Shown in pieces: positions 1,085-60,251 of a DNA stretch of 64,000 bases. A model generated the notes under the pieces. It ran no database searches. It was not told the origin of the DNA and saw only the letters and a program-made list of their open reading frames with translations. Within the stretch, counting starts at the first letter, position 1. Each line of letters begins with the position of its first letter. Made by a program: the position numbers and the translations under genes. Source of the stretch: Gordionus sp. m RMFG-2023 (taxonomy: Eukaryota; Nematomorpha; Gordioida; Chordodea; Parachordodidae); assembly GCF_954871325.1 (NCBI RefSeq), contig NC_088778.1, positions 2,389,743 through 2,453,742 of the forward strand, given 5' to 3'.

Positions 1085-2004
1085 CATTATGCTTGACAAG
1101 AAATGGTAAAGCGTCTAAAAACTTGATTTAAAAACTATATTAATTTGAATATATATAATTTTTTTGTACCTCTAGAGAATGTAATTCTGATCGACTTGTT
1201 GACTAAAATATTATTAGAAGAAACATTCTTAATATTTTATATACCTGATCCATGAAATATTTTGTCTCGTCCTTAAAAAATAATAATCGTATTATCTTTA
1301 AATACGAGATATAATTTAAGATAATAATTTATTTAATTCATATAATATTATGCAAAATTATTAAGTATTTGTAGCTAATAAATAAAAAATAAGGTTATAT
1401 TTTATAGAAATTAAAATAATATTCTAATTCAAATTTTAAAAAACTATTTATATTGTTTCTAGTTCGTGATTACCTAAGGTTATTATTAGGGTACCATTTA
1501 CATCCTCTAAATATCAAATTAAACAATGGAATAAACTCAAATAATATTTTTTCTTTCTGAAAACAAATCAATAATCATATTAGGAAAAAGATTTTAAAGA
1601 ACGTATACATTATATTATAAAAAAAAAAATTAATTTAATTCATTTGCTAAGATATATTATATTACCTATTCGTTTTTGAAACGTAGCTTAATAAATTTTT
1701 AAAGAATTAGCAATTTTTTAAAGATATTATATAAATGAATCTTTTTGCTTTGTACAATTATAGAATTTGTTTAATAATAAATACATACACTTAATAAATA
1801 TATTCTACTTGAATTAATAATGGATTCTGTTGTACTATTTACTAAAAATATATTTATGAAGCCACTTTACCTTATAAATATGATATATAAAATTAGTCAG
1901 TTTCAAAAAAAATAGCGAAAAACAATAAACCAAATAGGAAATAATTGACACTAATTGTAAAATAAATAATGGAAGGAATGATAATTTATCCAAATTATTT
2001 TTAC
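1085..2004 (-). CDS. Microexon gene copy, 5' half (unit A exons a-f), 3' half lies left of the window
   Basis: Six microexons between AG and GT, read on the minus strand from high to low: a 1809-1841, b 1666-1686, c 1474-1506, d 1245-1271, e 1170-1202, f 1085-1114 (33, 21, 33, 27, 33, 30 nt). Every length is a multiple of three and every junction codon is split after its first base. Peptides: a NSTTESIINS, c DVNGTLIITL, f ALPFLVKHN; no stop occurs in the common phase. A possible signal-peptide exon at 1950-2004 encodes a hydrophobic run (LSFLPLFILQL), but its 3' phase does not match exon a, so it is tentative; no start codon is evident where unit B has one. The donor of the putative 5' UTR exon (near 2183) reads GA instead of GT. 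Function unknown; probably a secreted protein by analogy with the other copies. Confidence 0.5.
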
Positions 2005-2558
2005 CTTTAGTTTATATACGAGATTTATATTAAAATAATAATACTATTTTTGATAATTGGTAAAGACTGTTTTATATTTTGCTGTGTATATTATTATTGC
2101 TTTTAATTTAAATTTATTAATTATTTAAAATTTAATTTAATTATACTATTAATAAAACTGAACTAAATCTGGTAGGAAATCCTGAAATTCTTTATTACCC
2201 AAATTAATAATTCTAACAATATTTTACAAATGTTTACGATTCTTGCGGTTTATAAAGACATCGCTAATTAAGGCACAAATAAAATATATTAATTCTGTTT
2301 ATTTAGAATGGAAATATTAAAATATTCCATAAACTATCATTGTTCTAGAATAAAATCATACAAAATTGTTTTATGATTGAAATTGTATTTTTAAATTTTG
2401 TAATTTATTTTGCACTTATATTTATTAATAAAAATTTTATAATCTTTTAATTTTAAAACATGAATATTTGATATAAGTAGAATCTAAAGACACAAGTAAG
2501 AAAACTAAAATTTTTATATTTTTAAGTAGAATAATTAAAAAGCTATATTAGATGATAT

Positions 2559-5500
2559 CTAATTATCATTGAAGTTTTTATATTTTATAGTAGAAATTAA
2601 ATTGTAAAAATATTTGTCAATATATTCTAAATTTTTATTATGAGTAGTAGTGTATAAAAGGTTTGAGTCGATTTTTAAAAATGACGAACTCTAAATTAAT
2701 CTGAAAAATATTATGCAAGCTTTAGGACTAGGCTTATTAATGGCACGTTGATCAATTAGCAAAATCTAGAGGCTTTGGCAATATACAGTTTAACAATATT
2801 AATAATTAGATATCTTTAAAAAATCTAACAAATTTATGCACTACATTTTACCTTTAGGTATCGTTTCTTGTTCTAAAATTTTAATTTAAAGCTATACAAT
2901 TATCAAAAAATTTTTTTTTACCTATAATGAGAATAAGGGTTTTATTTCTCAATCCTAATGTATTTAAAGGTTATCGTGATCATTATTTGCAAATTTACTA
3001 ATTCCGATATCCAAATTTGCTTAAAATATTTTTAAATATAGTAAATATTAAATCAAATTCATATAAAATTGTGAATATAATATACTTTGAATATAATGGT
3101 CAATGTACGTTAAGTAAGCTAAAACAAACATAAACATCATTTATGAGAATTCATATATATAAAACAAAATACTTTGTATAAAACTGGTAACATTTTCTAT
3201 ATATTTAATAAAAATAAATAAATAATGACTGAATACAGTCGTAATATAAAAATAAAAAATAAATTTTATATAAATATATAATTTACGAGATTCTCAAATT
3301 CATAACTATATATTTGATAAACCTTCTTTGATGTTTAAAATATCGCCACCTATAAATAAATTATAAATTCAATTTAAGGTAATTTTTATGTTTTTATTAA
3401 ATAAATAATACCTTCATTTTCACAAGAAAAATTTTGAATCACTTAAATAGTTAATTTTAATTTTTGTATAATGTAATATATATAATAATGATGACTTACT
3501 TTTAGCACGCCTGGAAATTATGACATTTGGAGCTGAACAAGTATTTATGATTAAAAATTTTTTTAACTCACCTATAGTTTGGAAATTTTTATGAGATATC
3601 GTATATCAATGCAAGAATAAATGTAAAATTAGTATGATTATTTAAGAAATATTTTTAATTCTCTTCTATTGAAAAAAAGTATATAAATTGATCATAAACC
3701 TATTTCTTTTAAATTCCCAAAAAAAATTTAATTTTATAGTCAGAATTATAGATTATGTTACTATAAGCCATTAATATATTTATAAAAAATTTACTATTAT
3801 TATTAAAATATATTAAAAAATAAACTAATTGAATAAACTATTCCCAAATCATTATTAATATAGTATTTTTGACATTTCTATTAAAAATTTTTGAATTTAA
3901 TTCTATTTCGATTAGCGTAAAATAAATTTATGTTATTTGCTCTTCCAATCTATGACACTTAACAGTTGATCTAGTGTTTAACATATTATAAAGGTTTTTC
4001 AATTTCTTAATTTTCAACTTCTATTAAAGAAGCAAATTAATCTTTAACTATTTTTAATATTTCTTTAAACTTTTAGCTATGGCAATGCTCAGATTATTTC
4101 TAAACAGCTCTTGTTTAGCAGGCCATTTAAGACTCATAAAATAAGGCTATTTGGATAAGATTCCCACACATTTAATCTAATAAAAGCTATATATATCAAT
4201 ATGTTAAACCAAGTACATTATAAAAAATTTAAAATTATCAATATATCTTCTAACTAGTTACAATATTAACACTGATTAAATTCATTTTTTTACAGTTCTA
4301 GTATTATTCTATTTTATATCAAATTTATTTTAATATCTTTGCCAGTCCATGTTTGAAGAACTTCGGTATATTAATGAAAATCATAAAATTCATGATAGAT
4401 GATTTAATTTATGAAAATGTCTAGATATTATAGGTTAATCAAATAAAAATTGGTATTATACCATCACTATACCAAGATATGGTATTGTAGATACGAATTA
4501 AGTATGTTTGAGCATATAAGTTAAAAATATACTTATTTCTATTATAACAAAATTTTGATTCTCTAAAAATATCTAAAACAAAACAGAAATAGCTCAAAGG
4601 CTGAATGGCCCTAAAATAAACAGAAATAAGTTTCAAAAGACCAACTTTAACACAATCTAACCATTTTTTTTTAAATTATGATGATTTCTCAAATTTATAA
4701 TCACAACCGGTCATAAACGATTGCCCACCCTGCATTTTCTTAGACATTTTTCTTAAAAATAACACAATATGAGGTAACAAATTTATTTATAAGTTTACAT
4801 ATTATTGCATAAAATTACAAAAAATAAAAGACATAGCAATTAATTAAGATCAAATTTTGGTCTCATCAATATGACCACCTTTATTCTTAATAATTGCTTC
4901 AAAAATTTTTGGTAATCTTTCGATGAGATTTTTAAATATTCAGAAGTGATATTGTTCCATAATCTCTGCAATACTTTCCAAAGGTGCGAATGAGAGGTTA
5001 GTGAGCTTTTTCACGCTTGTCGATCAAGGTGATCCCATAAAAGTTTGATTGGATTCAGATCGGACTGGGATGGCCAAGTCATCAACTCGAGAATATCTAG
5101 TTGTAGTAGATTTTGTAAATAATCTTTGCATAGCCTGGATGTATGCTTTGGGTATTATCTTGTGAAATAAAATTTATTCCCTATCAAACACTTTCCTGAT
5201 GAAATCACATGGTCCTCAAAAATTTGCTGGTAACCCTCTTAGTTAAGGATTCCTTTAATTTTAACAATGTCGGCGGTTGCCCCTGCACCAAAGCACCCCC
5301 ATACCATAACAGACCCTCCCCTGAGTTTGACTGTAGGAATTATGCAGTGATCGCTCATTCGCTCTCCAGCTGAGCGGCGGATATATTGCCTTCTTTTAGA
5401 ACCGAAGATTTCGAATTTTGACTCATCACTCCATAAGACGTGATACCATTTGGCAGATGTTCGAAATTAATGTTTTCATACCCAGTCTAATCGCTTAAGT

Positions 5501-8500
5501 TTATTTTTTTGCTCAAGAGTGGTTTTTGACCGCTACCCTACCATAAAGTTCAAAGCTCCTAAGGCGCCTTTTCACAGTTGTGTCACTTATCGGGTTTTAC
5601 CGAGTCAGATTAATCTCCGCAGCTATCTCTAAGGCGACAAGGCGTCGATTGCGTTTACTGATCTTTGCTATATATCCACCATCACTTAAAGTTGTTTTGT
5701 GGGGTCTTCCAGGCCTCTTTGGATTCGATATTGTATTATTGTTGCGTTTAAGTATACAATCGACTGTTCGTCGAGATAGGGTTAATTCTCTGGCAATTCG
5801 GCGCTTACTTTTACCATGTGTAAATTAATTATTTTGTATTTAGTTGGAATTTTTCTTTTAATCATTTTGGTCGAATGTTCGCTAAAATATTTATAAAGAC
5901 TGAAAGTTTCTTTAAACAATGATTTAAAACAAAAAAAAATCTAGGAATTTTTGTTAAAATAATTAAAAATAGGTATTAATAAGCAGATAAGAATGTGATT
6001 AATAACTTTCTTCCAAAAAATAATTGGCAACTTAAAATTGTTGCTAAAAAAAAACTAATGAAACCTATTTTACCAAAGTCATTTTTGACATGTTATTTTC
6101 AAAGCATGTTTCTGATAAATTTAATTTAAATTCCACACTGTTTTAACCATAACTCTTCTCATTATATGAATATATATTGCATTTTTTTTTATAAAATTCA
6201 AACGATATATGGAAAATAAAATTTATCGGAAAATATTTTAATTAAAATATATAGATTATAAATGCTACAAAATTATATATAACATCGTGATATTCGGATT
6301 AAAGATTTTTACCTTAAACAAAGGTTTTGTATAACTATAAAACTAAATTACATCAGTCAAGCCAATTTACCGTATAAAAATTAAGGTTTAAACTATCATG
6401 TTGACCTAGCGATTTTTCTAAAAATGTAACAAATTAAATTTAAAAAAAAACTAAAGTAAACTAAATGATTACAGTTATTTGATTTTCTCGAGGGACGCCT
6501 GTAGATTCCAAAATAGTCGACATAGTAATTATCAAACTATATGAAGCCAACCTAACCTTTTAAATTCCTTTTATAATATATTATATTAATCTTTTTTAAA
6601 TATTTTAATGTATACAATTATAATATAACATTTTATAAAATATTTTAATGTATACAATTATATATAACATTTTATAAAATATTTATATTATTTGTTTTGA
6701 TTATAATTAATATAATATAATCTAATAAAATCCAAAGGTATAAAATCATAATATAATATAAAAAACCGATAAATTATTTATGAATATCGGAATAGTTAAT
6801 ATAATATGGAAAAAAAATGAAAAGGCAATTATTATTTTTTTCAAATCGTAGAGGATTTAAAGTAAATTTTTACTTTGTATTTATCATAAAATAAGAGCAT
6901 GTTATAATAATAAAAATATTTTATAAATTATAGTATATTATAACTATAAACAATGTATATAAATATAGGATTAAAAAAAATTATATATATGAATTTATGA
7001 TTTGTTCCTATAATATGTTATATATTAGAAATTAACATTATGATTATAAAAAAATTAAATTTTTAATTACCCTTAAATTTTATTTTAAGATATTTATCAT
7101 CCTCCAATCATTATTTTCAATAATATTTGGTATATAATTGGGGTATAATTCGGCCAATTTGGTTAAACCCTTACAAGCGCGTATAGAATAAATTGGCTAT
7201 TTTCAATAAATTTTTACTATAATTATGATTATCTTTATCATTAGCGTTCTTCAATCATTTACATGTTAAAAATGATTATAATAAAAGATGTGAAAAATAA
7301 AAAAAATGAGATTTGTAAATCTGGTGAACCCGTCAGGCAACATTTTAAAATAATTTAAATTATTATAAAAATTATTTTTGCCCAATATAATGAATATATC
7401 ACATAAGTTATAAAATATTAAATATAATTATTTTCAAAACTTATATAAAATTTTAAATCACTCATATCTTGAGTTATTTGTATAACACATGCCTTTCACA
7501 TTACACATATTGGGTGAGATTTATTTCGAATTAAAAAGTTTTTAATGGACTGGAACTGAATTTTTAAAAAGAAATTCGGATGGATCCCAAAAATTTATAA
7601 ATTTTTTATTGGATATCGTTGGATATGAAAAAATGGGTCAATTGCAAAGCTCAAATTTATAATTTTAGATATAATCATATAAAAATTATTTTACATATAT
7701 ACCATTATGCTTAATAAGATATGGTCTAGAGCCTAAAATATATTTTTTTTAAATTATATTATTTGGTATATTTATAACTTTTAGTACCTTTAGAGGATGT
7801 AATATTGATTGACTCGGATACTAAAATATTATTAAATCAAAGAACTTATTCCTGTTATATGTATTATATTATGTACCTTGTCCACGATATCTTCTGACCA
7901 GTCCTAAAAAAAATAGTGAATTAGATTTTATATACCAGTTTGAATTATATAAATATAATATAATTGTTTGATGATTTCTTTAATTATAAAATAATCTAAA
8001 AATATTATATAGCCAATAAATAAAAATAATGGTATATTATAATATAGAAATGTTAAATTAGTAAATTAAAATAATCTAATTTAAAAAAAATATTTATATT
8101 TTCCAGTTGTATATACCTAAAGATATTATAAGGGTGCCATTTACATCTTCTATATATTAAATAAAATAAATATTGGAATTATCTCAAATAAAATTTTCTA
8201 TTGCTCGAATAGAAATAATTAATTATCTCAGGATAAAAGATTTAAAAATACATAGATTAAATTATAAGAGACATTTAAATTTAGCCTATTTCTAAGATAT
8301 AATATTACCTACCTATTAGTTTATTAGCTTTAATGATATAAATTTTTAAGGATACATAATCAAAAAATTTTAAAATATATTATATAAATGAATCTAATTG
8401 ATTTTAGAAAATTTTTTTATTTTAAATTATAATATTACTTGAATTAAACATGACTCCTGTTGTATTAACTATAATATTTTATAAAAATTAAACTACCATA

Positions 8501-8771
8501 AATTGAATAATGATACAAGTATGAAATTGAATAATATTATGGAGGTTTATACACTAATTATGAATAAAATAATAGAAGAAATGGTAATTTATAGCTATTT
8601 ATTTTAACTAAGTTTTATGTAAAAAATTGCCAAAATATTTTAATTTTTTTCAAAATATCATTTGAATATTTTCTCCAAATAATTAATTAAACTGCTTTAT
8701 TTTGTTGTAAATAATATTTTTTATTTTACCTTTCATTTTAATTCACAAGTTAATTTATAAACTATTTTTTG
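2559..8771 (-). CDS. Microexon gene copy 1 (unit B exons a-f + unit A exons g-n + terminal exon)
   Basis: Most complete model. Exons: a 8439-8468, b 8313-8327, c 8117-8149, d 7877-7903, e 7788-7820, f 7703-7732, then a 4.2-kb intron holding a dead Tc1 element, g 3500-3532, h 3412-3441, i 3323-3349, j 3173-3196, k 3086-3118, l 2999-3019, m 2922-2954, n 2852-2872, terminal exon 2559-2626 ending in TAG. Joined in phase 1 the chain is open throughout, about 151 residues. Peptides include NTTGVMFNS (a), DVNGTLIISL (c), SRPYLIKHN (f), IQNFSCENE (h), YLTYIDHYIQ (k). Exon g has Ser where other copies have Cys. Upstream, exon 8730-8771 ends ATG AAA G in the right phase, and 8553-8607 could be a signal-peptide exon (KLPFLLLFYS) but has an in-frame TAA, so the 5' end is uncertain. 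Resembles bicycle/MEG genes in structure; homology is untested. Confidence 0.6.
3533..4854. other. AT-rich intron sequence (f-to-g intron of gene copy 1)
   Basis: No exon or element supported. The minus-strand ORF at 4439-4636 has no recognisable content. The block at 4690-4740 (TTGCCCACCCTGCA) may belong to the non-coding end of the adjacent Tc1 relic. Confidence 0.4.
4855..5830 (-). pseudogene. Tc1/mariner-type transposase relic
   Basis: Minus-strand translation, in pieces, gives the order of a Tc1-like transposase: a helix-turn-helix part with GRPHKTTLSDGG (about 5.70 kb), WSDESKFEIFG with the first catalytic Asp at 5425-5427, VMVWGCFGAG, a decayed QDN box (SQDNTQS) with the second Asp at 5157-5159, DLNPIKLLWD, and a C-terminal RLPKIFEAIIKNKGGHIDET. 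The third acidic residue, expected in NPIE, is Lys (AAA at 5044-5046). Several stops and frameshifts are present. No clear terminal repeats or TA duplication were found. It lies in the f-to-g intron of gene copy 1. A plus-strand ORF at 5580-5828 is only its antisense. Confidence 0.85.
6601..6679. repeat. Tandem duplication, two copies of about 40 bp
   Basis: Two adjacent near-identical AT-rich copies (6601-6640 and 6641-6679), differing by one or two bases. No coding content. Confidence 0.8.
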
Positions 8772-8840
8772 CTAAATAATATTAATTTTAATTAACAGTT
8801 ATAAAATTATAATGAGAACATAAGTAAAATAAAATATAAC

Positions 8841-8913
8841 CTGAAATCTCTTATTTTCCACAATTATACTAACAATATTTATATAATGCTTTTATCTCTT
8901 ATGGTTTATAAAT
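8841..8913 (-). promoter_or_regulatory. Possible core promoter and 5' UTR exon of microexon gene copy 1
   Basis: A TATAAA-like element on the minus strand (8904-8913) is followed about 70 nt downstream by a donor-like site, CAG then GTTATA, at 8841. The arrangement recurs near 58.79-58.86 kb (TATACA, intact donor) and near 2.18-2.26 kb (TATAAA, donor decayed to GA), each time between exon n of one gene and exon a of the next, as expected of a gene start. Conservation of the block in three units is seen; promoter function is inferred. Confidence 0.3.
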
Positions 8914-9526
8914 ACCCGCTACTTATACATCAAGCACAAATAAAATTTATTAACTTAAATTAGAAAGAGAATGTAGAAATTTATACATATCAATCTCCTA
9001 CAATAACACATTAACTGCATGAATTGAATAGCTATATTTATTTTAACAAGACATCAAAATATTTATAAAATTAAATAAATGTGTTGTTATAAACCTACAT
9101 AAAATAATTAATATTATAAAAGGTATATATGATAAACCTATAAAAATACCAACTCTTTCTTTTCTATCCTTTCTACTTTAATCTAATTCATTGTTTAATA
9201 GTGAATCGTTAAAGAATTATTAATTAATTTAATCCATTATGTGAAATACTATTTTATTCGTAATTAATTTTATGATTGCAATCAAAATTTTTTAAAATTT
9301 ATTTTGCACTTTATCAATAAAACTATAATATTTACTAGTTGAAACTATTATTATCAAGTTCATTTAAAAATTCTTATGAATATAAATATTTAGTTTATTT
9401 TGAATCCTATTATCGTTTATGTATTATTATTTTAAAACATAAATCTATAATGAAAAATATATTTTTATAAAATACTATTATAATGTTAGATAATCTCTTA
9501 TATAAAAATAATCACTATATAACCTT

Positions 9527-12500
9527 TTCTTATTTTATAATGGAAATTAAAAAGAAAAAAATATTTGCTAGTCTAAATATTTATATTGAAAATATAAAAA
9601 GAAATCCAGCGAATGTATGCACTTTACCTTTAGGTTTAGTTTTTTGCTCTAATATATAAACATTTATACAATAAAATTATCATAATTATTTTATACCTAT
9701 GCTTAAAGAAAGGTTCTCATTTCTCAATCCTATTATATTCAATTAAAATTGTTTCATGGTGAAACATTATTTGTAAAATTACTAATTCCGATCACCAAAT
9801 TTGATGCTTAATATATTTATGATTATTATGTGAAATTCTTATAAAATTAAGAAAGTAATATACTTTGAATGTAATGATCAGTGTGATTTAAGTATTCTAT
9901 AAGAACATAAATATATTTTATAAAAATCCTTAGAAGTAAAATAAATAACTAACTCTGAATATAACTGATAACATTTTCTATAATTAGTAAAGGTAGTATA
10001 AAATGATAAAATTAAGTCTTAAAATTAAATTTTTTATTTGTAATGATTATATAATGCATATGATTTTATAAATGATAAATTTGATAAACCTGCTGTAATA
10101 TTTTTAATAAAACCGTCTATAAATAAATAATACATTTAATTTAAGATAATATTTTAAATTTATAATCCAATACCTTCTTTTTCGCAAGAATAGTATTGGC
10201 TCACTTAAATAATTTATTTAAAATATTTTTTACTATGTTGTATAAATTATTGATGATTTACTTTTAGCACGCCCACAAATCATAAGATTTGGATCTGAAT
10301 AAGTGTTTATAATTTGAAAAATATATATTTAACATAGATATAGATGGTAATTTTATTAAATCGTTGTTGTCAGAATTTATCTATGTAACAAATAAAATAT
10401 AAAATTAACATGATTATTTTATAAATAAGTTTAAATATTTTAATGAAATTGAAATAGATAAATAAATTAATAATATTTTTCTTCTTAATTCATCCATAAA
10501 CCTGTAATTCTTATTGTCAGATATATATATATATATTAATCTATTATTAATAAAAGATAAATGATTGAACTATTCCCAAGTCAATAATGATATAAGATTT
10601 TTTTTTTCTAGGAGATTGGAACATCTCTTCTTTGTTTAAACCCTTCGAATAGTTATTAAAATTAAATACTACTCTGCCATCGTGCCAAAATCGGTAATGG
10701 GTTTACATGTCCATTCTAATATAATTTCTTTTGGTGAGGAAAACTTTTTGAAATGGCATCAAATGATTATTCAAAAGATATAAATTTATGTTTTCTATTT
10801 CTTAGCTTCTATTACATATGGAATAGCTTTAGGTATTCTATCTAAAGGAATTTGTATTAAATCTAAATTTTAATATATTGATAATATTTCTTTAATATAT
10901 ATAATAAATTATAATGCAAGGATTTATTTTTCATGTCTTGTTTTTTTTTTGATCTAAAAATCGAGATATTATCTTCCTATAAATCTTATTTTTCATATAT
11001 CCTTTGAATTTAATAAATAATTCTAGTGTAAAAGAAAAACTATTCATTAAATAAGGACAAATGTGTTGAAATATTTGTATAATGAGATGTTCCCTTATTA
11101 GCATATATAACTATTAAACAGCGTTTAATAATGCGTTTATTTTCTAATTTAAATTAAATTACGCATAAAAATATTAGATTACAAAAAAAGAATATGACAT
11201 AAAATTTGTCTTCTAATGTTACCTTGATTCATTGTCTTCCCAACTATAAAAAAAAAGATACAAAAAAATTTATATATATTCCCTCATTTTAAAATAAAAA
11301 AAAAATATAATTTTAGTGTTTTCTAATAAAATGACTTATAACTATAGTTGGTTAATTTCTATATTTTAACAGTTAAATATAAACGGATTCTCTTCAATTG
11401 CCTAAAGATTTAGCCGAATAAGCCGACATTTCCAATGTGTATTAATCCTGATTACATGCCATTTGACCAATGATCGATAATCAAATCCCATCAAATTAAA
11501 TTAAATTTAAGACAATATTAACTTTTTATTTCGTATAAAATAGTAAAATGTATAAATATTTTTTTATCATTGTCTCTATAATTGTTCTATGTGGCAAAGT
11601 TTTCTGATTCATACTTATCATTTTTCTGCTGTTATTTAATCGATTTCTGTTTTTCTATGAATCCAGCCAAATCGGTCAATTTATTCATAAAGAAGTAAAA
11701 TTTTGAATTGTCAATAAAATTCAGTTCTCTTAATGGATAAAATTGACTCACAAACTTGGGCCGACATCTTTTTAATTTATAGAAGTTACTGCTTTCATGC
11801 GATTAAATCTAATATGTCTATTTAATCGTAAACATTACACACACTTTAAATATTTATCTTATAGATTTTTCTTGAAGAAAGATTTCTGAATATATAAGTC
11901 GGCCCATTTAATTGAGAAATATATTTCAGAAGGGTGCAATAATAGAAATATAATGACTTATATTAGACATCCATAAACTATTTTCTTCATTGAATCTTAA
12001 AACAAATTATTTTAAATAATCTTTACATTATGAAAGGAGTTCCATGTAAGAATCATTTTTTTTTTCCATATATATTTGCTAATACATTTTATTCACCGAA
12101 AAGACAAGCTTCCTTTTTTTTCAATGATGAATCGACTTAAATAAAAATTTACTATTTGTTTTACAATATTTTTTTATGGTTATATCTAGAAAAAAATTCC
12201 ATAATTTAGAGTTTCATAACTAGAAAAAGCAGATAACGGTTACACTTTAATAAATTACATAATAAATCGCACAAAATATAAATTTATATTAAGTAAGCCA
12301 AAATTATACTGACTATTATCTTTGATAAAACTTTGAATGTTAATATGATTGAATTTATTATTGTTTAATATAAAAATTATGATAAAATATATTAAAGTAA
12401 ATTCAAGCGCATAAACTATAAATTGTAGAATATTATCTTTTTATAATGAAAGTTGTTAAATTATATTTACCTTTTAACCATTGGATTCCTATGATTATAA

Positions 12501-14889
12501 AGTTATTAATGAAATAAAACGATTTTGTCTTCAATAAAACGCATTTATAGTAGCAGAAAGAAAATTCGCTATAAATTTATGGTGGGTATTTCTCTCATTT
12601 ATCAGGAAATAATATTAAAAATTTTAAATAGTACAAAACATCAAGTGAAATCAATAAGAAGCCCAGGTATTATATAATTATTATTTATCGATATGAAAGT
12701 ATATACGAATTCCAATTTTTATAGTGTTATTGACGTTAAATAGACACTTACAAAAAAATAGTAAAAATTTATAAAATATTTTTTCTAAAAATCTTTTAAA
12801 TGTGGTAAAAATAACTAGATCTCAAAGAGAAGTGAATTGCATCTTAGATGAGTGACCAAACAAATTAAATAGAATAATTTTTAATGTTTAACTGAATCTT
12901 TTATTTAACAAACTTTTTTGAATTATCATAATATATTTTATATTAAATATACATGGTTTAAAAATCTGATAATATCGTTTTTGTATTAAACATTAAAAAA
13001 AAGAATATTGTAGAATTAAAATCAAAGGGTCATAAAATTGAAATAGACTTTATTTTAATTTAGAATGAGGTTAACAATAGCTATTCGAGATGAATGATAA
13101 ATATCTACAATTGCATGAATGGTACATTTTTATTCAAAAAGCCAAGTTATAGAAGTATCAAGATTAGAGTTATTTATGGTCGAATAAGAATATATAAATA
13201 ATAAATCAACTTTTAAATTTGCAAAAATAAAATAAAATCATCCAAAAAGCAATATTGATGTCAACATAAAATATCAAAGAATAATTAACGAATACATTTT
13301 TGATATATAACTGTAAACTCAGAAAGTTACATAAATTTTAAAATATCTATAAATAGCAATTTTATTTGCTTCTTTTATTTAATTTATCCAGTTGTAAATT
13401 TTAAATATGAGGATGTTATAAATTTGAAATACCATTATGCTGTATAAAGTAGGAAGGGCTATCTGTTAATAATAGTTTTATTTTATGAATCATAAAATTA
13501 ATTGGATATTTATGAGAATAAAATACTTCTGGATAAGATTTCCATTTCATGGGTTACTATAATATTATTAAATGGATTAGGATTTATTTTTTAAATTATC
13601 TTATATACCATGCTTTCGGAATATTTCTGTTCTTCCTAATATAAGAAAAATATAATTAATTTTATATACATATTGAGCTTGTGATTAAAGTAGGATATGT
13701 AACTAATATATTTAGACTAATAATTCACTCATGAGCCTATATTCTTTTTATAACTCACCTAAAAAAGCGTTAAAATCGACAAAACCTTGAGTATATAGGT
13801 TAAAATCTATCTTATATTCTATTTCTTTTAGATATTTATTTACTATCTAAACTTATTTAGTTGAGTCAAATATTGTTATAAATTAAATTGTATATAAATT
13901 TTATTGTATATTTTTATATAGTCGTATTGTAATTGATTAAATATATCTTAACTTAAGAGTTGTAAGGTAGAAATTAAAATTATACAATTGGTTAGGTCCC
14001 ATTTTTATGTAATTTTTAACTTAACTTATTATTTTTTTCACAAACTTCTATTTTAAAAAGGATATTAAAAATAACATGTATATTAATAAAATAATAAAAA
14101 TAACATTTGAAAGATAAGAAATTTTGTAAAAAGTATCAGTTGCAAAGTAATTTTTTTTTAAAAAATAATCAAATATTTGCTTTCTAGGTAAGAGAAACAT
14201 ATTTATTTTTTTTAAAATAATGTTTAAAATAGGTTTTGAAAGTTATTAAAAAAATATTTTATTTCATATCGTGCAAGGATTTTATATTGTATTTATTACT
14301 CTGTCACATTAATTATAATAAATGATTTAAAATTTATTTTAAAAATATTGTAAAATATTATTTTTTATACACTAATAAATTTATGATTTTTTGTAATTTC
14401 CATTTATTTGTAATGTTTTTGGGTAGTAATAAATTTAAAAAATTCAGGATGTTGTTACCCTCTAACATACCAATCACAAATTATTATAATATTTATATTA
14501 ATCAAATTTCGATTACCTAAATATATTGTCAGAGTGCCATTTATTTTTTCTATATACAGTAAATTTTATATATAATAGTGATAAATAAATATATCTTAAT
14601 GTATAATGTAATATTCATAGATTATTAATTTTAAATTCTAATATTCTAAAAACAAAAAATAATTCGTTTTGAGTTTTAAGAAAAATTTTAATTGAAAATT
14701 AAATTAAAGAAATATAAATTTGTGTAATATATATAAAGAAAGAAACAAAAAAAGAAAGAATTGAAAGATATACTTAGCCATGTAATTGCCGTTACTTTAT
14801 AAAAAATGTATAATTTTATTGAAGATATTGTGTAAATAATATATATTTAATCATGAATCTACTTTTCTTTGCTAAAGCAGGAGTTGAAT
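9527..14889 (-). CDS. Microexon gene copy 2 (unit C exons a-f + unit B exons g-n)
   Basis: Exons: a 14863-14889, b 14774-14794, c 14517-14549, d 13609-13635, e 13527-13556, f 13433-13462, then a 3.1-kb intron, g 10262-10294, h 10174-10203, i 10090-10116, j 9954-9977, k 9864-9896, l 9783-9806, m 9697-9729, n 9628-9648. All lengths divide by three, all share phase 1, and the joined reading frame is open. Exons g and h carry one cysteine each (PNLMICGRAK, SQYYSCEKE), a few residues apart in the product. Unit C exons a, b and e (STPALAKK, TAITWL, THEMEILSR) are the most diverged versions in the array. The stop is reached soon after exon n: AG at 9573 gives an immediate TAG (9568-9570), while AG at 9568 gives about 13 more residues ending near 9527. 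The start region was not resolved. Confidence 0.55.
10295..13432. other. AT-rich f-to-g intron of gene copy 2
   Basis: 3.1 kb with no transposon I can recognise, the only f-to-g intron in the array where I found none. A GC-richer patch at 10670-10740 and another at 11400-11780 have no readable protein. Confidence 0.4.
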
Positions 14890-25440: not shown

Positions 25441-25488
25441 CTCATAAAAATGCCAGCATCCAAAAAACTCTAGAGCCTAGTCACTTAT

Positions 25489-41395: not shown

Positions 41396-42104
41396 TGAAA
41401 ACTTTGGAAAAAGGATTCAAACTCAGCGTCAAATTCTGCACCATTTTCTTCTCTCGTTTTTCTTGTCACACAGTGTAATCAATATTCACTTCTTAGTTTA
41501 TATACTAGATTTCTTAATTCAGATTATTATAACTTTAAACTTATTTTCAACTATCCTCACATAAATACTTCAAATATTTAATATTTTGTATTCAACAAAA
41601 TTGGTGGATTATAAAATTTAGCTGTTTTTAATTCGAAACTTTTGTTAAACAACCTCTAAAAATTTATATATTGCAATCAAATATTATTCATTATTTTTAA
41701 AAAAGAAGAATAATTTAGTTTCAATATTTTCTAAATTTGTTTAAAAAATAAATAAATTTACATTTACTCAGATCTTTACCTAATGAAATGAAAGAATAGA
41801 TGTAATATAATTAAAAAATATAATTAACTTTATCTTATTAATTTAATAATATTAAATTTAAAAAAAAATTAAAATATTAGAAGCCTTGAAATGTTTGTCA
41901 CATATTTTTATGATTTTAAACGAGGTATAAAATTATATTTACATGATGATGTGAATTTAAATTCCTTAGCCAAAAATGAAGGAAAATGTTTAAGAATATA
42001 TTACGTCACAATGAAAAAAAATATTATAGGTTTGAATTAATATCCCTAACCGAAAAAAATATAAGATTTTATAAAATTTTAATATTAATAAAATTATTGA
42101 TTAC

Positions 42105-50550: not shown

Positions 50551-51086
50551 CTATAATAAAAATTAAAGACATATTATAGCAAATAATGATATGAACTTCA
50601 TGAATAGTAAACAAGAGTTTTAGTATGACACCCTCAGATTAATATAAAAAATATATATTGATAGTATCTATGATAGCTAATGAAAATATAAAAATTCAGA
50701 ATTTAAGCCTATACAGAATCCAAGATATGGGCGATCATAGGAAACAATATAAAATTTGATTTACATAATGCAAATATCATGGGAGGTTAAGCTGAAATAT
50801 TTATTTAAATATATTCAGGTAGTTTATAAAGAGCCCTTTAATATTATATTAAAATTTTATTGGTGAAAAAAAATACCAAAGGATAATAAAAGATTTTAAA
50901 AACCGACAATAAGTATAAAAATTAATGGTACTTTCATTCTGAGATTTGTTTTATATATAATTAGATATCAAACAAATATATAAAATTTTAGAATGGAAAT
51001 TCTAGACGTTTTAAAGTTATGATTGACTCCTTTATATTATTATAAACGTATTATCTTTTTTTGAAATAAAATTATATTTTTTTTAC

Positions 51087-54000
51087 CCCTAGGTTCCATT
51101 TCTTGTTCTATATTAACATTTAAGCTATAGAATTTATTCTATAATAAAAATAATACCTATGTTAATAGTAAGGTTTTTATGGGTCATAGCTAATTTAATT
51201 AAAATAGATAAGATAAAAATTATCTTTTGCTAATTTATACTTATTCCGATCACTAAATTCGGTGCTTAATATAGTTATAAATATAATTAAATACCAAATG
51301 ATATTTTAATAATTGTAAATAAAAACGTACTTAAGATATAATGGTCGTACGTATCGTGTACTGAATCTATAAGAAAAATAAACTTTTTTAAATAATGATT
51401 TTTAATAACATATTTTAAGTGTCTTATACATAGATATGTGGTCTTATAACCTTAAAGCCGCTAATTAATCATAAATAATCTATTTCCATAAATGACTTTT
51501 AACTACTTTTACCATTAATATTTAGTTATACTACGACATTAATAAACGGCACTATATTTTAAAAAAATATAGATAAAGAACGCAAAATTCTAAACTAAAT
51601 TACTGAACCATGCCAGAAATGACAGATATACCTTAAAGATTTTTATTAAAACACAAATTATAAAAAGGCAAAATAAAGTAAATGATCTAGCTCTCTGCAG
51701 AAATTTTAAAATATTTAAATTGTACAACTACTGAAAAACATAAAGTCAACGTAATAAAAATACAAAATTATTAACAAATTTAATTGCAATATTTATATAT
51801 TATATGCCCGACTTGAACTGAAACTCCCCAAGGTTCACTTAGAGAAATACATCTTACCTTTTTCAGTTTTCATCCAGCCAAAATTTATATCCCATTATAT
51901 CAGCCTAAGGAATTTTGAAATATCATGAACTTAAATTTTTATTTCTTTCTTTAGGCTATTTTAATAAATGTTCATATAGTTATATACATATAATTTTTGG
52001 GAAATAGATTGCTCTAATTGATTTGAATCATAAAAACTTTTGAGAAATTTTATAATAATTTTAAAGTGCAAATTTTATAAAAGTTAAAAAAACTTTTTAT
52101 ATATATACAATTTTTTTATATTTGAGTCGAATTATATTTTCTGATATATAAACTTAATTGTATTAATTTTGTATATTAACTATAAATGTCATTTATTTAT
52201 TTGTTTAGTACGTAATTTTATTTATTACATCATACATCAACATCACAAATAGAAATTAAAAACGCCAAATTTCATGTAGTTGCATAATTTAAAAAATAAA
52301 ATAAATAAATATTTTTTAAAAAAAACCCACATACACACATATATTAATGTTATAAATAATCATCTTCTAGAATGAGGCTTAAAGTTAATGTAATTAGCCT
52401 TAGCTATGGCGGATCTAATAGGATGGATAGACAATCAGGGAAAGATTTGTAAACTAGCATTCTTACACTTTGTGGATCCTAAAAATGATATTTGGTTTGC
52501 AATAATCAAGAAAAGAGTCTGAGAAGCAGGGATTGATGAGAATGAACAAAATTTTCTGGAACAATAATCGATTGACTGACAAAAGACAGTGGTGGAGAAA
52601 AGCCAGAATGTGGAAATCTAACAGAAGGCATGAACTTAAAAAAAGCCATCATATGGAAACAATGGTTAACTAAAAATTTTGAACAATGATGCAGAATAGT
52701 TGAAGAATATAAAGATTATGGAGCAGCTATGGTAATGACCCGACTGAATACAAATGAATAAATCCAAATTTAACCAGAAAGATGTTTATAATTGGTATGT
52801 TTTTTACTATATACAAAAAGTCGCGAATGGATTAAGAATAATATAATCCTTTATAAATAATATAAAGGATTGATGATTGAAACTTTGGGAAAAGATGCAA
52901 AATATAAGAGATCGATAAATGAAACTGAAGAGGAAAATTATACATAAAACCACCATTGAAAATCATGTTTTGATATCAGTACAAGAGGTTTTTAAAAATT
53001 TTAGATTAAATTTATCATAATTTAATTATTATTTTTTTAACATTTTTGTAGTGTATTATATATTTTTTTATAAAAAAAAATTTATAATTAAACTATATAG
53101 TATTTAGATATTTCTGATGAATTAATACTTGACCCTTAAGAATGAGATCATATTAGATTGTGATATCGTAATTTGATCCAGAATAATTTAAATAAGTGCT
53201 TTAAAGTAAAAAATAGATAGATATTAACGCTTGCGTACCATGTGACCAATAAAAAAATAATAACTATAAATGTGGCCGTTATTATTTTTGTGGGAAATAT
53301 GAGATTAAGAATTTTCTTAGTCTACATTTAATCCAAAGAAAATGTTTAAATAATATAATATATAATTTCTAATAAAAATTATAAATATGATAAACAACAA
53401 CATTTAAATGTAAAATTAATGTCATTTTGAAAAAATTGGTGTTTAATGCGGGAAATTACAAAAGAAATTTATGTATAACTGCTATTAATATTCTGCTAGT
53501 AAAAAAAATTTTCTTATTTAATTTTTTTTTAAATATTATTATAAAATAACTTATATAATGCGTTAAATTAATCTCTAAATAATCATTTTTGTATATCAAT
53601 TACAATTAAAGCAAATTAGAATTTTAAATATATATAAACGCACGATAATTTTGTTCATTTTAAGCTATATATTACAATGAGATAAAATAGTTAAATAAAC
53701 ATATATAAAAAAAACTACGCGACACAGTGAAGAATGTTAGTGTGCGCAGTGCCAATAATTTTTTTTAAAAGCTGCCACTAATAGTTATGACGGCGCTTAT
53801 ATCTACTTATACTTAAATAATGGTACATAAATATTTATTGGTACTAAAACTAAGTAATATAATTTATGATATTCTGCAATATTTTACAGAATCTAATATA
53901 ATTTATAAACCTGATATTGTTTTTAGCCCATTTTCATCTTTAAATAATTATTATATTGATTATAATGGAAAATTTATAATAAAATTATTGATTAATTATA

Positions 54001-57000
54001 CCTTCTATTTGACATGTTATGGCTGAAATAATATTTTAAATTAATATTAATTCTACAAAGTAATATCAATGAAAAGTGACTTACTTTTATCAAGGCTACA
54101 AATAAATATCTCTGAAACTAAATAGGAGTTTATTTATATGAAAATAAATTATATTTTATACAATAAATAATATAACTTTATTAAAATGTTTATTTTTTTA
54201 TAGTTAATATTCCGAAAAATAATCCATTGATTAAATTTTAATATTATAGATTATATTAATTTAAAAAAAGTTCCACTAAGCAGAAGTTGGGCATGTCCTT
54301 TATGAAGATAAACATAAAACAAATTCTTTTAAAGTCCTATATAATTTGTATTATAATTATAATTTTTTAAATATATTATTTAAAATAAATCATATTTTGA
54401 TTTTTATATCGAATTTACAGCTAATTTTTAAATGACACATAACCAGCAGAGTCAAATAATAGAGAAAATTATTACAACGAGCTGAAAGATAAATGAGCAA
54501 TTATCCCGATATTTTTGAAATCGTTTAAATTTTTTTTAGATTATCCGAATTACAAACAAATACATGATATTTCAACAATTTTAATAAAATATTTTAACAA
54601 TATTATTTTAATATTTTTATAATTAAAAAGTGACATTATTATGATAAAAAATTTAAAATAAATTTATAACAAATCGAATTATTTTAAAAAAACAATCGGT
54701 ATGAGTAAAAGGAAAATGAATAAATATATTACTGTGTTACTGAAAACACATTCTTGTATCGAAGGTATAAGTATTCGCAGTATTTCCCAACTTTGATATA
54801 TATATTTATATCTATATCCACCTTAAGAAAAAATATTATTTAAATTACCTTATTTTAAAAAACTTACCAAAAATATAATATAATTATAACAAGATATACC
54901 TCTCACCGCATCATAACCTATCAAAATATTCATATTAATGTTTGAGTAAATAAAGCAGTAATGCCTTCTTAATATAATATAATATTCTTGAGTTAAAATA
55001 TACATCTATCTCAAATAAATATCTGATGTTCTTGATTTGATTGTTTTATAAAGAATTTTGATTTGAGCTTGCTCTATCTCAAATTTTTACTCTTTTTCTC
55101 GGTAGATAGTTAATCTTTTTTATTTTTGCTATCAATATATTTCAACTTCATAATTCTAATCTTATAAAACTCAGGAATGTGAACCCTTCGACAAAAAAAA
55201 GGGTACAGGTTCGGGTTCAAGGAACATAAAAATAATGACTCAAAATAAGACTTTTTTTTCATAATACTTCATATGAAAAAGAACTTGTAAATCTTTCTAT
55301 ATCTAATCGACATCTTATATATGCTCTAAAAATCCGATAAACATAACTGTCTTGCAATCTTAATGTAGTTATTTTTAAAGGAACCAATACACTAGTAAGG
55401 TCTTTTATTTGATTCCAATCATCTTCCGACAAAATGACTTCACATGCTCCTATAATAAAATAATTACAGAAATCTTTCAAACTTATTAATCGCTCTAGCA
55501 TCATACAAATAGAGGAACAACGTGTTGTGCAATCTAAAATTGTCATTTGCCTTTTCATAAATTTTAATATTCTTATAATTATGGGAGTTCTTAAATATTT
55601 TACAACATCCCTTGCTTTATCAATTATAGTTTTAAAGTGATTATTTTTTAGGGAATCATTAATAGCCAATTGTAGCGTATGTGCTGCACATATGATGTAG
55701 TATATTTTTATGGAGAAATCTTTTATTATTTCCTGTAAATCAATTTCACTTATGTTCTCATAATCATCATCTATATCATCCATCCAGTGAACATTCATTT
55801 AATAATTTGATAGATTTTACTAGATTAGCACCATTATCTGTAGTAATTGTATAAACGTTTCTAATAGGAATATATAATTTATTTAATATTTCTAATTTCA
55901 TTCTTTTTATATTTTCAGAAGTTGAACTCTCTTTAATCTCCTTCATAACTAAATTTTTTATAATTATATTATTTCTTTTTATATACAGTATATTTATTCC
56001 TAGAATATTTTTCCTTAATCTTTGGGCGGAATCAAATTTTAATGAAATTAATTTTTGTTGTTTATTTTATTATTTTTGCTTGTATTTTTTCGATTCATTA
56101 ACCACTAAGTCCTTAATTTTAAAACGGTTAATTGATGTTCCAATTGCTTTACTAATAGGATCAATAATTTTTTTTTAATCTCAATAATATTGAAATGTCT
56201 TCCATTTATTGTAACAAGCTCAACTAAAGCATTCATCAAATTCTCCTCAGACATTTGAATATGCATGCTTTTTTTAAAGCAAAATTTTATCCTTTGTACA
56301 ATACTGATAGTATTCTTTGTACCAATGTCTTCTTCCAAAAATTTTGTTTTTCTATTTTAAATATTCCTCAAAAATTATAGAATGATGTCTTTTTTTTAAA
56401 TTAAAATATTATTACTTACAAAATAATTCCAAATATTTCACTTTCAAATCAAAATACTCAAAGTATCTAATAAGAGCAAATAAATTATCACAATTAAAAT
56501 ATTATTACTTGCACTAAAAATAATTCACTTTTAAAAAAATCAACTTATTTCTATAGTATAGCATAATAATAAATTTATATAATAATATTATTACTTACAC
56601 TAGAAAATAATTTATAATATCAATCTCTAAATAAAATGAAATGAAGTCCAGGAAGAAAAACGAAAGAAAAACGCGAAGATAAAATAAATGATTCCACGAA
56701 AAAAATTAATAAAATTATAAAAATTTTACATTATTTTTTAAAAATAATATTTTTACATTATTTTTTAAAAAAATAATTTTATGTTAAAAATTTTTTCTGA
56801 ACCCTTGGACCCTCCCCTTTTTAAAAGGGTCAGCGTCTGGGTTCACATCCCTGATAAAACTCTTTACTTCATAGAAAATATTCATTTTTATTTTACATTG
56901 GAATCGACGTTATTATTATAGCAATCAATACCTCCTGCTGTATGTCTCTTCATGTCATGTATAATAACGGTAGAATAATCAGCGACTCATCCAATGAGTT

Positions 57001-58493
57001 CAACAAAACGATTGTTATAATCCTGAGGATAGGTTCATATTTATGGCTCATTACCAATAAGAACAAATATAAATTCATCCAACTAAATTGTTATGAACCT
57101 AACGGCCACAATTTTAAGATTATTAATCAAGATTAACTAACACTTAGGATCCACTGTTTTGTAACTCGACCGTTTTCACCTTTCTTATTCAGATTTTGCG
57201 ACTTTTTAAAAGTTGGGCGATATCTTACTCCTACTTTCTCTCATAAACTGTTTTGGCTTTTAAATTTTTTTTGAAACCATTAATCACCAATATATTATTT
57301 TTAACAACAATATTTTAAAACCCATTTAAAAATTAGTGAATATTTTAAAATAAATTTTTATCTCGATGTTTTTATGAAACTAATTTCCAAAAATAACCAT
57401 AAAATTATTCATATTCTTAAGAGCTAATAATTTTTCAGATTTTGTTGAAATAACCTGCATTTCGATATTATAATAAAATAAATTTAGATCGGAAAACAGA
57501 TTTATTTATAATATAAAAAATTATAATAGACCGGGATGGAATTTTAATAAAATTCGTATACATCCCAAAAATTTTTATAAAATCGCTTTGGATTTGAAAA
57601 AATAGGTTCATGCAGTGCTCAAACATATTTCAAATTTATAATAATAATTATATATTATTTTAAATTTTTATAATAATCATATACTATTTTTTTTAAATAT
57701 ATACCATTATGCTCGATAAGATATGGACTAGAGTCTAAAATATTTTTTTTAAATATATTAATTTGGATTTTATATCTTTTTTTATACCATTAGAGGATGT
57801 AATACTGATTGACTCGGATACTAAAATATTATTAAATCAAAGACCTTATTCCTGTTGTACATATTATATTATGTACCTGGTTCTTGAAATCTTTTGATTA
57901 GTCCTAAAAAAAATAGTGAGTTAGTTTTCATATTCCAGTTTAAATTATAAAATATAATATAATTGTTATTGTTGCTTTAATTATAAAATAGCCCAAAAAT
58001 ATTTGAGAATTAATAAATAAATATAAAGGGATATAATATAGAAATGATGTTATATTAGTAAATTATAATAATCTAAATTTAAAAAATTATTTATATTGTT
58101 CCAATCGTGAATACCTAAAGATATTATAAGGGTACCATTTACATTTTCTAAATAATAAGTAAAATAAATTTTGAAATATGCTCAAAGATAAAATTTTTAT
58201 TGCCCGAATTGCAATAATTAATTATATCAAGAAAAGATATTTAATAAAATATATATTAGATTATATGAGAAACATAAATTTAATCTATTTCTAAGATATA
58301 ATATTACCTACCTATTAGTTTTTTAGCTTTAATGATATAAATTTTTAAGGATACATGATTAGCAATTTTTAAAATATATTTATATAAATGAATCTAACTG
58401 ATTTTAGAAAAATTTTATTGAATTTTATTTTATAATAATTGTCCTTAATTAAAATTAATTTACTTGAATTAAATATGGTTCCTGTTGTATTTA
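51087..58493 (-). CDS. Microexon gene copy 6 (unit F exons a-f + unit E3 exons g-n)
   Basis: Exons: a 58464-58493, b 58312-58326, c 58115-58147, d 57877-57903, e 57788-57820, f 57705-57734, a 3.6-kb intron containing a 1682-bp hAT element, g 54085-54117, h 54002-54022, i 53911-53937, k 51331-51366, l 51241-51264, m 51157-51189, n 51087-51107. Exon j is not found. Lengths all divide by three; the joined frame is open. Peptides include NTTGTIFNS (a), SESISITSSN (e), SEIFICSLDK (g), ITCQIE (h). Unit F is very close to unit B in sequence, including introns, so these are the most recent duplicates. The ATG AAA G exon seen in B is mutated here, so the start may be lost. Confidence 0.55.
52406..52800 (+). 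pseudogene. Unrecognised decayed coding-like relic
   Basis: GC content rises and a 38-codon frame (MADLIGWIDNQGKICK... to TGA at 52520-52522) is followed in another frame by MRMNKIFWNNNRLTDKRQWW. I do not recognise the protein. It lies in the i-to-k intron of gene copy 6, so a transposon or captured gene fragment is likely. Confidence 0.3.
55164..56861 (-). mobile_element. 1682-bp hAT element with perfect 8-bp target duplication, transposase decayed
   Basis: The element spans 55172-56853 and is flanked by ATAAAACT on both sides (55164-55171 and 56854-56861). Ends are CAGGAATGTGAACCC and, inverted, CAGGGATGTGAACCC. Both ends also carry an inner TGAACCC...GGGTTCA inverted pair. Minus-strand transposase pieces: MSEENLMNALVELVTINGR (56105-56338), EIKESSTSENIKRMKLEIL, YTITTDNGANLVKSIKLLN, then an open 179-codon stretch (55259-55798) with CAAHTLQLAINDSL, DCTTRCSS and ERLISLKDF. 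The frame is broken upstream, and the element ends right after the open stretch, so the C-terminal dimerisation domain is missing. It is an internally deleted, non-autonomous copy. Confidence 0.9.
56862..57704. other. Stretch with an unrecognised plus-strand ORF and intron sequence
   Basis: A 64-codon plus ORF (56942-57136) lies in slightly GC-richer DNA (56890-57250) that I cannot assign to a family; it has no supporting motif. The rest is AT-rich intron upstream of exon f. Confidence 0.35.
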
Positions 58494-59537
58494 CTATATT
58501 TTTAAAAATTAAGTTACTATATAAATTTAATAATAATACGAGTCTAAAATTGAATAATATTGAACAAAGATTTATACACTAATTATAAAAAAATATAATA
58601 GAAGATATGGTAATTTATCTCTATTTTAACTAATTTATTTAAACTGCTTTATTTTGTTGTAAATTATTTTTTTAATATTTTTTATCTAAATTCACTAGTT
58701 AATTTAAAAACTATATTTTTTTTGCTAAATATAATATTAATTTTAATTAACAGTTTTCTAAAATATAATGATAACATAAGGTAAAATATAACCTGGAATC
58801 TCTTATTTCCAAAATTAAATTTAAAAAAGCTTTATCCTCCTATGGTGTATAAAAACCTACTAGTTAATTATACAGCAAGCATAAATGAAATTTATTAACT
58901 TCTGTTTAAACTAGAATGAGAATATCAAGAGTTCACAAATATAAATCATTTACAATAATACATAAATTGATGGAATTGAATAGCTATATTTATTGTAATA
59001 AGACATAATTTGAGAAATGTAAAAAATGTGTTGTTATATATATTAAACCCACTTAAAAATTTTAACATTAAGAAAGTTTAAATGATGAGCACTAAATGAT
59101 ATAATAGTTTCAGAATAAAATTTTTTAGAAGCTTACTATTCCGAATTTTTATTTTGTTAAAAAGGGTGAGCTTTACTTTAAATTATATAATTTAAATTAT
59201 AAAACCAAAAATATTTATCCCACCTTCCCCTTTACTTACTTTGTTTCTTTCTCTTTCTTTTCTATCCTCTCTATTTTAATCTAATTCCTAGTATAATGGT
59301 GAGCGTTATAGTAATTGTTATTAATTAATTTTCTTCCTTATGTGTGTTTTATGTAATAAAATATCAATTGTAATCAAAATTTTTATTTTTATAATTTATT
59401 TTGCTATTTTATTTATTAATAAACCATCATTTTTAGGAAAACCTATAACATTTGATTTAAAAATGAAAAGAAATATCTAGTTTATAAAATAATCACTAAG
59501 TATATAGAGATAGCAAATTCTTATTTCATAATGGAAA

Positions 59538-60251
59538 TTAAATAGCAAAATTATTTGCTAGTATTCAAAATATTTATAATGATTAGACATAAAATCAAAT
59601 CTAACTATTGTATGCACTATACCTTTGGGTTTCGTTTTTTGCTCTAATATATTAATACTATACATGTAATTTCATAAATATTTTATACCTAGGTTTAGAG
59701 TAAGGTTCCCATTTCCTAATCCTAATTCAATTAGAATTGTTTCATAATGAATATCATTTGTAAATTTACTAATTCCGATCACCAAATTTGATGCTTAATA
59801 TATTATATATATTATAAATTAATTTAAATTCTAAAATTAGAAAAGTATTATACTTTGAATGTAATGGTCAGGTTGGTTTAAATATTCTATAAGAACATAA
59901 ATATTTTTTATGAAAATTCTTATACTAATAACTAACTCTGTATACAACTGGTAACATTTTCTATAATTTGTAAAAGTAGTAATAAAATGATAATGATATA
60001 ATTAATTCTTAAAATTAATTTTTTTTTATAATTGATAACTATTTATATGATAAACCTGCTAAGATGTTTTTAATTAAACCGTCTATAAATAAATAATAAA
60101 TAAGGTAATATTTTAACTTTATAATCCAATAAATACCTTCTTTTTGGCATGAATAGTATTGGCTCACTTAAATAATTCAATTATTTATATTATGCAATAT
60201 ATATTAATAATGACTAACTTTTATTACGCCTACATATCATGATATTTGGAT
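59538..60251 (-). CDS. Microexon gene copy 7, 3' half (unit F exons g-n + short terminal exon)
   Basis: Exons: g 60219-60251 (PNIMICRRNK), h 60137-60166 (SQYYSCQKE), i 60056-60082, j 59937-59960 (NVTSCIQ), k 59854-59886, l 59770-59793, m 59689-59721 (LGNGNLTLNL), n 59623-59643 (QKTKPK), possible terminal exon 59538-59557 ending in TAA after five residues. All eight internal exons divide by three, share phase 1 and keep AG/GT borders. The matching a-f half must lie beyond the right edge of the window, across the RTE element at 61.4-63.8 kb. Confidence 0.55.

What the first reader, a model, noticed from the sequence alone, without database searches (positions are those of the whole stretch)
1085..60251. 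A tandem array of genes made almost entirely of symmetric phase-1 microexons
About 100 short segments, each bounded by AG...GT on the minus strand, recur in the same order in eight units. Lengths are 15-45 nt and, with one or two exceptions, multiples of three; in one common phase none of the intact exons contains a stop. Where copies differ in exon length they differ by whole codons (exon c 33/36, d 24/27, f 24/30/33, g 27-45). Introns between them are diverged AT-rich DNA, so conservation of length, phase and splice sites points to selection on protein. ORF-based annotation misses all of it. Known parallels are aphid bicycle effector genes (many phase-1 microexons, fast evolution, secreted) and flatworm MEGs; the peptides here do not show an obvious CYC motif, so this may be a distinct family.
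Basis: partly seen in the sequence, partly recalled or inferred. Interest (0 to 1): 0.95.

Follow-up and report, generated by a model that had tools for sequence, protein, structure and literature searches.

The report
Hairworm microexon genes with repeat modules
A parasitic horsehair worm carries a cluster of genes for probably secreted proteins, one of them cut into 64 exons that nearly all hold whole codons, so that pieces can be skipped without breaking the protein; this design is known from parasitic flatworms and resembles aphid gall genes, and our searches turned up no description of it in this phylum.

Summary
(1) The animal is no aphid: a nuclear COX1 copy is 100% identical to Gordionus alpestris, and a public protein from this locus is from 'Gordionus sp. 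m RMFG-2023', on a contig of exactly our length: a horsehair worm, Nematomorpha. (2) The eight 'units' are not genes but ~130-aa modules repeated inside multi-module genes, each gene with one signal-peptide exon. One gene (23654 to ~94) lies wholly in the window; the other modules, bar one stray exon, are the 3' part of its neighbour. (3) It is annotated: RefSeq LOC135928293 isoform X5 (615 aa, uncharacterized) maps exactly onto 64 exons; 60 of 62 internal exons are multiples of three, mean 28 nt. Six isoforms differ only by skipped exons. The family spans ~590 kb of C4 on one strand, with 10 first-exon loci, and a second site on C5. The gene meets a published structural definition of flatworm micro-exon genes; homology to them could not be tested. 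Likeliest: a convergent, fast-evolving, glycosylated secretome diversified by exon skipping, perhaps host-facing; expression and function are untested.

The parts
94..23654 (-). Gene G4 (RefSeq LOC135928293), whole gene: signal-peptide exon, partial module, four modules, predicted terminal exon
   Evidence: Exact mapping of isoform X5 (615 aa) as 64 exons 23654->1087; predicted last exon 94-122
23597..23654 (-). First coding exon, 58 nt, signal-peptide-like, ends in phase 1
   Evidence: Found at four gene starts, aligned, first exon of the RefSeq protein
23522..23542 (-). Exon 2, 21 nt
22867..23323 (-). Partial module (exons 23297-23323, 23211-23234, 23118-23150, 22867-22902)
   Evidence: DNA similar to the start of type-II modules
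19238..22710 (-). Type-I module 1 of G4, exons A-S
13433..17057 (-). Type-II module of G4, incl. two neighbouring non-symmetric exons of 20 and 52 nt (15990-16009, 15889-15940) in RefSeq
12471..12488 (-). Linker exon T, 18 nt
   Evidence: Conserved at five sites; in RefSeq
11223..11243 (-). Linker exon Z, 21 nt
   Evidence: Conserved at four sites; in RefSeq
7703..10294 (-). Type-I module 3 of G4, the one that differs between the six public isoforms; holds exon O 8313-8327 (15 nt), not used by the isoforms seen
1085..3532 (-). Type-I module 4 of G4
   Evidence: RefSeq isoforms seen end inside exon S by another acceptor (1087-1121)
94..122 (-). Predicted terminal exon with stop, followed by a conserved 3' block
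   Evidence: Alignment of five 3' blocks; not in the RefSeq isoforms seen
38542..61016 (-). 3' part of gene G3 (its first exon is at window coordinate 79736, outside the window)
60996..61016 (-). [not shown]
57705..60251 (-). Type-I module of G3
49716..54117 (-). Type-III module of G3, with extra DNA at about 53.8-52.0 kb compared with its homologue at 155-160 kb
42105..46465 (-). Type-IV module of G3, several exons seen by splice scores only
   Evidence: similar stretch at about 147.9-151.9 kb
38542..38576 (-). Predicted terminal exon of G3 with stop, AATAAA downstream
32209..32241 (-). Lone exon G between genes G3 and G4, probable relict
   Evidence: the only one of 157 profile exons outside the five gene spans

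Best explanation
These are micro-exon genes of a horsehair worm (Gordionus, Nematomorpha). Each gene has one signal-peptide exon, then three or four ~130-residue modules, each encoded by about 14 exons of mostly 15-36 nt, then (predicted) one terminal exon. Introns in the symmetric part interrupt a codon after its first base, so any exon or run of exons there can be skipped without a frameshift. Shown: exon and module order, the frame rule, constraint on the exons, exact agreement with public spliced models of one gene, and isoforms that differ by whole skipped exons. Inferred: the product is a secreted glycoprotein with one conserved cysteine pair per module; exon skipping and tandem duplication diversify it; it is released toward the arthropod host, as MEG proteins of flatworms are thought to be. 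Expression site and target are unknown.
For: RefSeq isoform X5 maps exactly on 64 exons; 60 of 62 internal exons are multiples of three; 91% of the coding length lies in symmetric 6-36 nt exons. Six isoforms differ only in which exons of the third module they include. Signal-peptide-like exon at four gene starts; five predicted terminal exons; 10 first-exon loci, all in the C4 cluster. Of 124 exons, cysteine is in A (7 of 8), B (8 of 8) and 1 of the other 108; sequons 41 against 13.2+-3.3 shuffled, 23 in the protein against 7.8+-2.4. A C5 stretch, picked by DNA similarity and so not blind, has all 14 exon types in order: 14 on one strand, 0 on the other. Indels and substitutions are fewer in exons.
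Against: No expression data, so secretion to a host is inference. dN/dS is weakly below 1: 0.60 over type-I modules, with pN at or above pS in 5 of 14 exon types; 0.44, 0.94, 0.62, 0.67 and 0.27 for five pairs, the upper bound below 1 in 2 of 5. RefSeq isoforms seen end at a frame-shifted exon S, not at the terminal exon I predict; one of the five predicted terminal exons (147.3 kb) has its stop in a shifted frame. Two adjacent exons (20 and 52 nt) are not symmetric. The profile search returned only isoforms of this one gene, no paralogue. That RefSeq 'X' isoforms rest on RNA-seq is recalled NCBI practice, not shown here.
Confidence: 0.6

Rival explanations
1. The same gene structure, but the product is a structural or reproductive glycoprotein of the worm itself (cuticle, egg string, gamete or mucus coat), with microexons and repeats arising by exon-level duplication, not host conflict.
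For: Signal-peptide-like exon, many sequons and repeated modules suit a coat protein; modest purifying selection.
Against: Exon-skipping isoforms and tandem expansion of divergent copies are not needed for a coat; but nothing here excludes it.
Confidence: 0.25
2. The array belongs to the aphid bicycle/megacycle effector family.
For: Same exon phase, microexons, signal peptide; megacycle genes also repeat a block inside one gene (PMC9168663).
Against: The organism is a nematomorph; no CYC motif in 124 exons, though non-aphid bicycle homologues lack it too. Sequence homology was not testable: my profile search took only proteins of 338-1076 aa.
Confidence: 0.02
3. Each unit is a separate gene.
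For: Units recur with the same exon order.
Against: By eye, no start is conserved before exon A and no stop after exon S in type-I units; linker exons T and Z join modules; the RefSeq protein runs through four modules and a partial one.
Confidence: 0.02
4. Decaying, untranscribed repeat array.
For: Repeats and inserted DNA between modules; a lone exon at 32209-32241.
Against: Frame, splice-site and indel constraint and spliced public models.
Confidence: 0.02

Closest known systems
Micro-exon genes (MEGs) of schistosomes and tapeworms
   Same: Signal peptide, long runs of symmetric microexons, diversity by exon skipping, high divergence, no known domain (passages read: PMC4413821, PMC5825161, PMC7653826); the tapeworm Hymenolepis has ten MEGs of one family within about 430 kb of Chr6
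   Different: Different phylum; sequence homology not testable here; a protein of repeated modules, 615 aa, about three times the longest S. mansoni MEG protein named in PMC10526429 (189 aa)
Aphid bicycle and megacycle genes
   Same: Internal exons start at codon position 2 (phase-1 introns), signal peptide, many small exons, internal repeats in megacycle (PMC9168663)
   Different: Reported from aphids, phylloxerids and coccids; CYC motif (absent in non-aphid homologues) and helical saposin-like fold (PMC13041983, abstract and passages) not seen or not testable here
Pea aphid KQY/KHI cassette effectors
   Same: Large gene, small secreted protein, dozens of miniature exons (PMC7495047, abstract and passages)
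   Different: 33 of 37 KQY1a exons are 15 bp or smaller; loci mostly scattered; no module repeats mentioned in what I read; insect

Membership tests
Micro-exon gene, operational definition of PMC7653826 | At least seven exons | tested here: met
   64 exons
Micro-exon gene, operational definition of PMC7653826 | At least half of exons under 70 nt and divisible by three | tested here: met
   60 of 64
[quoted passage not shown]
   Runs of 27 and 33 in the list
Flatworm MEG families (by descent) | Sequence homology to flatworm MEG proteins | not tested
   My searches took only proteins of about 237-754 aa and 338-1076 aa; MEG proteins are up to 189 aa in PMC10526429, so they could not appear
Flatworm MEG families (by descent) | Expression in host-contact glands | not testable with these tools
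   No expression data
Bicycle genes | Internal exons start at codon position 2 | tested here: met
Bicycle genes | N-terminal signal peptide | tested here: met
   (by hydrophobicity, no SignalP)
Bicycle genes | CYC motif | tested here: not met
   0 of 124 exons; putative bicycle homologues of non-aphids also lack obvious CYC
Bicycle genes | Lineage of aphids, phylloxerids, coccids | tested here: not met
   Gordionus
Bicycle genes | Saposin-like helical fold | tested here: inconclusive
   AlphaFold2 model unusable, mean pLDDT 26.1

The most novel reading that the evidence does not exclude
A further, independent origin of a combinatorial microexon secretome in a parasite: hairworms evolved MEG-like genes of repeated cysteine-paired modules, expanded in a ~590-kb cluster, whose exon-skipping variants are released into the arthropod host and take part in immune evasion or behavioural manipulation.
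Probability: 0.35. Interest if true: 0.88.

Novelty: new variant of a known kind. Interest (0 to 1): 0.73.

Why it matters
Symmetric-microexon secreted genes are known in flatworm parasites and in plant-sucking insects. A well-supported case in Nematomorpha, a phylum known for steering its hosts to water and poor in recognisable genes, would make repeated, independent use of this gene architecture by parasites a testable rule, and would give hairworm researchers a defined, probably secreted family to look for in hosts.

Tried and rejected
Phylloxera or aphid origin: my first guess; dropped after COX1. One giant ~590-kb gene: rejected by repeated first and terminal exons. A conserved block with a signal-peptide-like ATG exon at about 25.6 kb and -12 kb: not in the RefSeq protein, unexplained. 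Intron distances by gapped alignment: uninformative, since unrelated flanks scored nearly as close (0.24 against 0.19); replaced. Hydrophobic periodicity: inconclusive. Pfam: 2 families at E<=1, neither over its cut-off. PDB by sequence: 5 matches at E<=10, best phage capsid proteins at 5e-5, judged chance because the match crosses a module boundary and does not recur in the other modules. Structure prediction with six isoforms: mean pLDDT 26.1, so no fold search. Genome paper of Gordionus montsenyensis not held. Nematomorph microexon genes in print: none seen in the lists of searches (8 of 8 papers listed; 20 of 182; 5 listed; 8 of 872); open-access library only.
Full report
What is there. 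On the minus strand of the window, short segments bounded by AG and GT recur in a fixed order. I aligned three copies, read off 14 exon types (A to H, N to S) and searched the window and 100 kb on each side (fetched). The window is C4:2389743-2453742 of a 287-Mb genome. The scan kept 157 non-overlapping exons in 264 kb, 73 of them in the window. Counting overlapping variants in its last round, there were 148 hits of score >=40 on the minus strand and 0 on the plus strand, 175 and 2 at >=30, 260 and 19 at >=20. None of the 157 lies in the 40 kb beyond the array's 3' end.

Is it more than chance? Splice-site scores alone, without a length rule, give lengths of 0/1/2 mod 3 in 113/31/36 pairs on the minus strand of the window and 31/27/17 on the plus strand; 98 of the 113 are open in the phase-1 frame. 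The matrices were trained on exons of this region, so this is not fully independent. Elsewhere, an 8-kb stretch of C5, picked because a module matched it by DNA, holds all 14 exon types in order, 14 on one strand and 0 on the other. Aligned copies show 1 indel in 1005 exon columns and 137 in 6378 intron columns, and substitutions of 13.8% and 23.1% (the exon list used there held only multiples of three). The frame-free mapping agrees: 86 of 87 confident cases keep a length relation of whole codons; three of the 87 show a changed AG, GT or length (11 of 98 cases were dropped as unmapped or low-scoring).

Units are modules, not genes. By eye, no start is conserved before exon A nor a stop after exon S in type-I units. 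Instead a linker exon T follows S at five places and Z precedes A at four. A scan for ATG exons with a hydrophobic stretch ending in phase 1 gave 29 candidates on the minus and 15 on the plus strand; four on the minus strand, at window coordinates 133070, 79736, 23654 and -15167, share one sequence pattern and donor and align with their flanks. Terminal exons are predicted at about 147.3, 89.7, 38.6, 0.1 and -60.7 kb; in four of the five the stop is aligned and in frame, in the one at 147.3 kb the frame is shifted and stops a little later. That gives five genes in 264 kb; by S exons, four modules each in G2, G3 and G4, three in G5, two seen in the cut-off G1. Genome-wide, a module finds 64 matches: 57 on C4 between 2330205 and 2917735, all on the minus strand, six on C5 and one on C2 (40 of 126 candidates scored). 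The first-exon block finds 10 loci, all in the C4 cluster; the 3' block finds 9 matches, 7 of them in the cluster.

Which animal. The best COX1-like stretch in the nuclear genome (of 48 matches), read in the invertebrate mitochondrial code, is 100% identical over 447 aa to Gordionus alpestris; the next three, all hairworms, 85-91%, the rest of the 120 listed 70-72%. Published facts fit: Gordionus montsenyensis 288 Mb (PMC11603191, passages, which gives Gordius aquaticus the same size), Gordionus sp. RMFG-2023 n = 5 (PMC11371463, one passage). The contig length of 34,615,747 in the public record, equal to our C4, settles it.

The public record. A query of one module's exon peptides, held apart by X, returned six entries, all isoforms of 'uncharacterized protein LOC135928293 [Gordionus sp. 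m RMFG-2023]' with numbers up to X22; one entry stands for 17 sequences. Isoform X5 (615 aa) maps exactly: 64 exons from 23654 to 1087, 62 internal exons of 18-52 nt, mean 28.3, 60 of 62 multiples of three; coding sequence is about 8% of the span. X19 and X17 map too; the other three were not tried. Of my 44 profile exons in this gene, 41 are RefSeq exons to the base; the other three are exon O, a longer variant of R, and S; 22 of 63 RefSeq internal exons were not found by profile. A list from splice scores and frame alone had 55 of 70 right. The six isoforms are identical except in the third module, where B, D to H or N are skipped in different sets. So the exons are spliced as predicted, at least in NCBI's models, and the symmetric phase is used for exon skipping.

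The product. Type-I modules in X5 share 57-63% identity, I against II 31-32%. Cysteine is almost confined to exons A (7 of 8) and B (8 of 8), with one more in D (1 of 6); sequons are about three times the shuffled expectation. dN/dS is 0.60 over type-I modules, with pN at or above pS in 5 of 14 exon types, and 0.44, 0.94, 0.62, 0.67 and 0.27 for five pairs, the 95% upper bound below 1 in two of them: constrained but fast. No Pfam domain passes its cut-off; the structure prediction is unusable.

How it likely works. The architecture is the one described for MEGs: short internal exons divisible by three that allow many splice forms by exon skipping, a signal peptide, no known domain (PMC4413821, passages). 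X5 meets the operational definition of PMC7653826 and exceeds the ~80% share of symmetric 6-36 bp exons quoted in PMC5825161 with 91%. Homology to flatworm MEGs was not tested: the length filters leave out proteins of that size. So it works like a MEG; that it is convergent is inferred from the distance between the phyla. Host-facing secretion is the likeliest role for a parasite of arthropods, but it is inference; a coat or reproductive glycoprotein is a live rival.

Against the bicycle reading: phase rule, signal peptide and microexons match (PMC9168663, sections 6, 11 and 12 read), but lineage and CYC motif do not, and neither fold nor sequence homology could be tested.

Noticed in passing
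G000 C1-C5 and small contigs; L041: 48 COX1-like matches scattered through the genome, many with stops: abundant mitochondrial insertions in this hairworm assembly.
   Followed up: partly
window 25407-25724 and -12250 to -11950: A conserved block with an ATG and a 58-nt exon-like start upstream of genes G4 and G5, not used by the RefSeq protein; a second promoter, another gene or an inserted element.
   Followed up: partly
window 32209-32241: A single intact G-type exon between genes, a likely relict of a lost module.
   Followed up: no
window 55259-55798: 179-aa ORF that looks to me like a hAT-type transposase fragment (recalled, not tested), between the type-I and type-III modules of G3.
   Followed up: no
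window 31447-32075 and 62508-63154: Inverted copies 84-95% alike of a dispersed repeat; a repeat at about 30.6-31 kb has dozens of genomic matches.
   Followed up: no
window coordinates -56196 to -57697: Perfect tandem repeat of 104-nt period inside the 22-kb gap of the G5 type-I module.
   Followed up: no
window 1087-1121: RefSeq isoforms seen end at an acceptor 7 bases upstream of that of exon S, which shifts the frame to an early stop; may be a model artefact or a real truncated form.
   Followed up: partly
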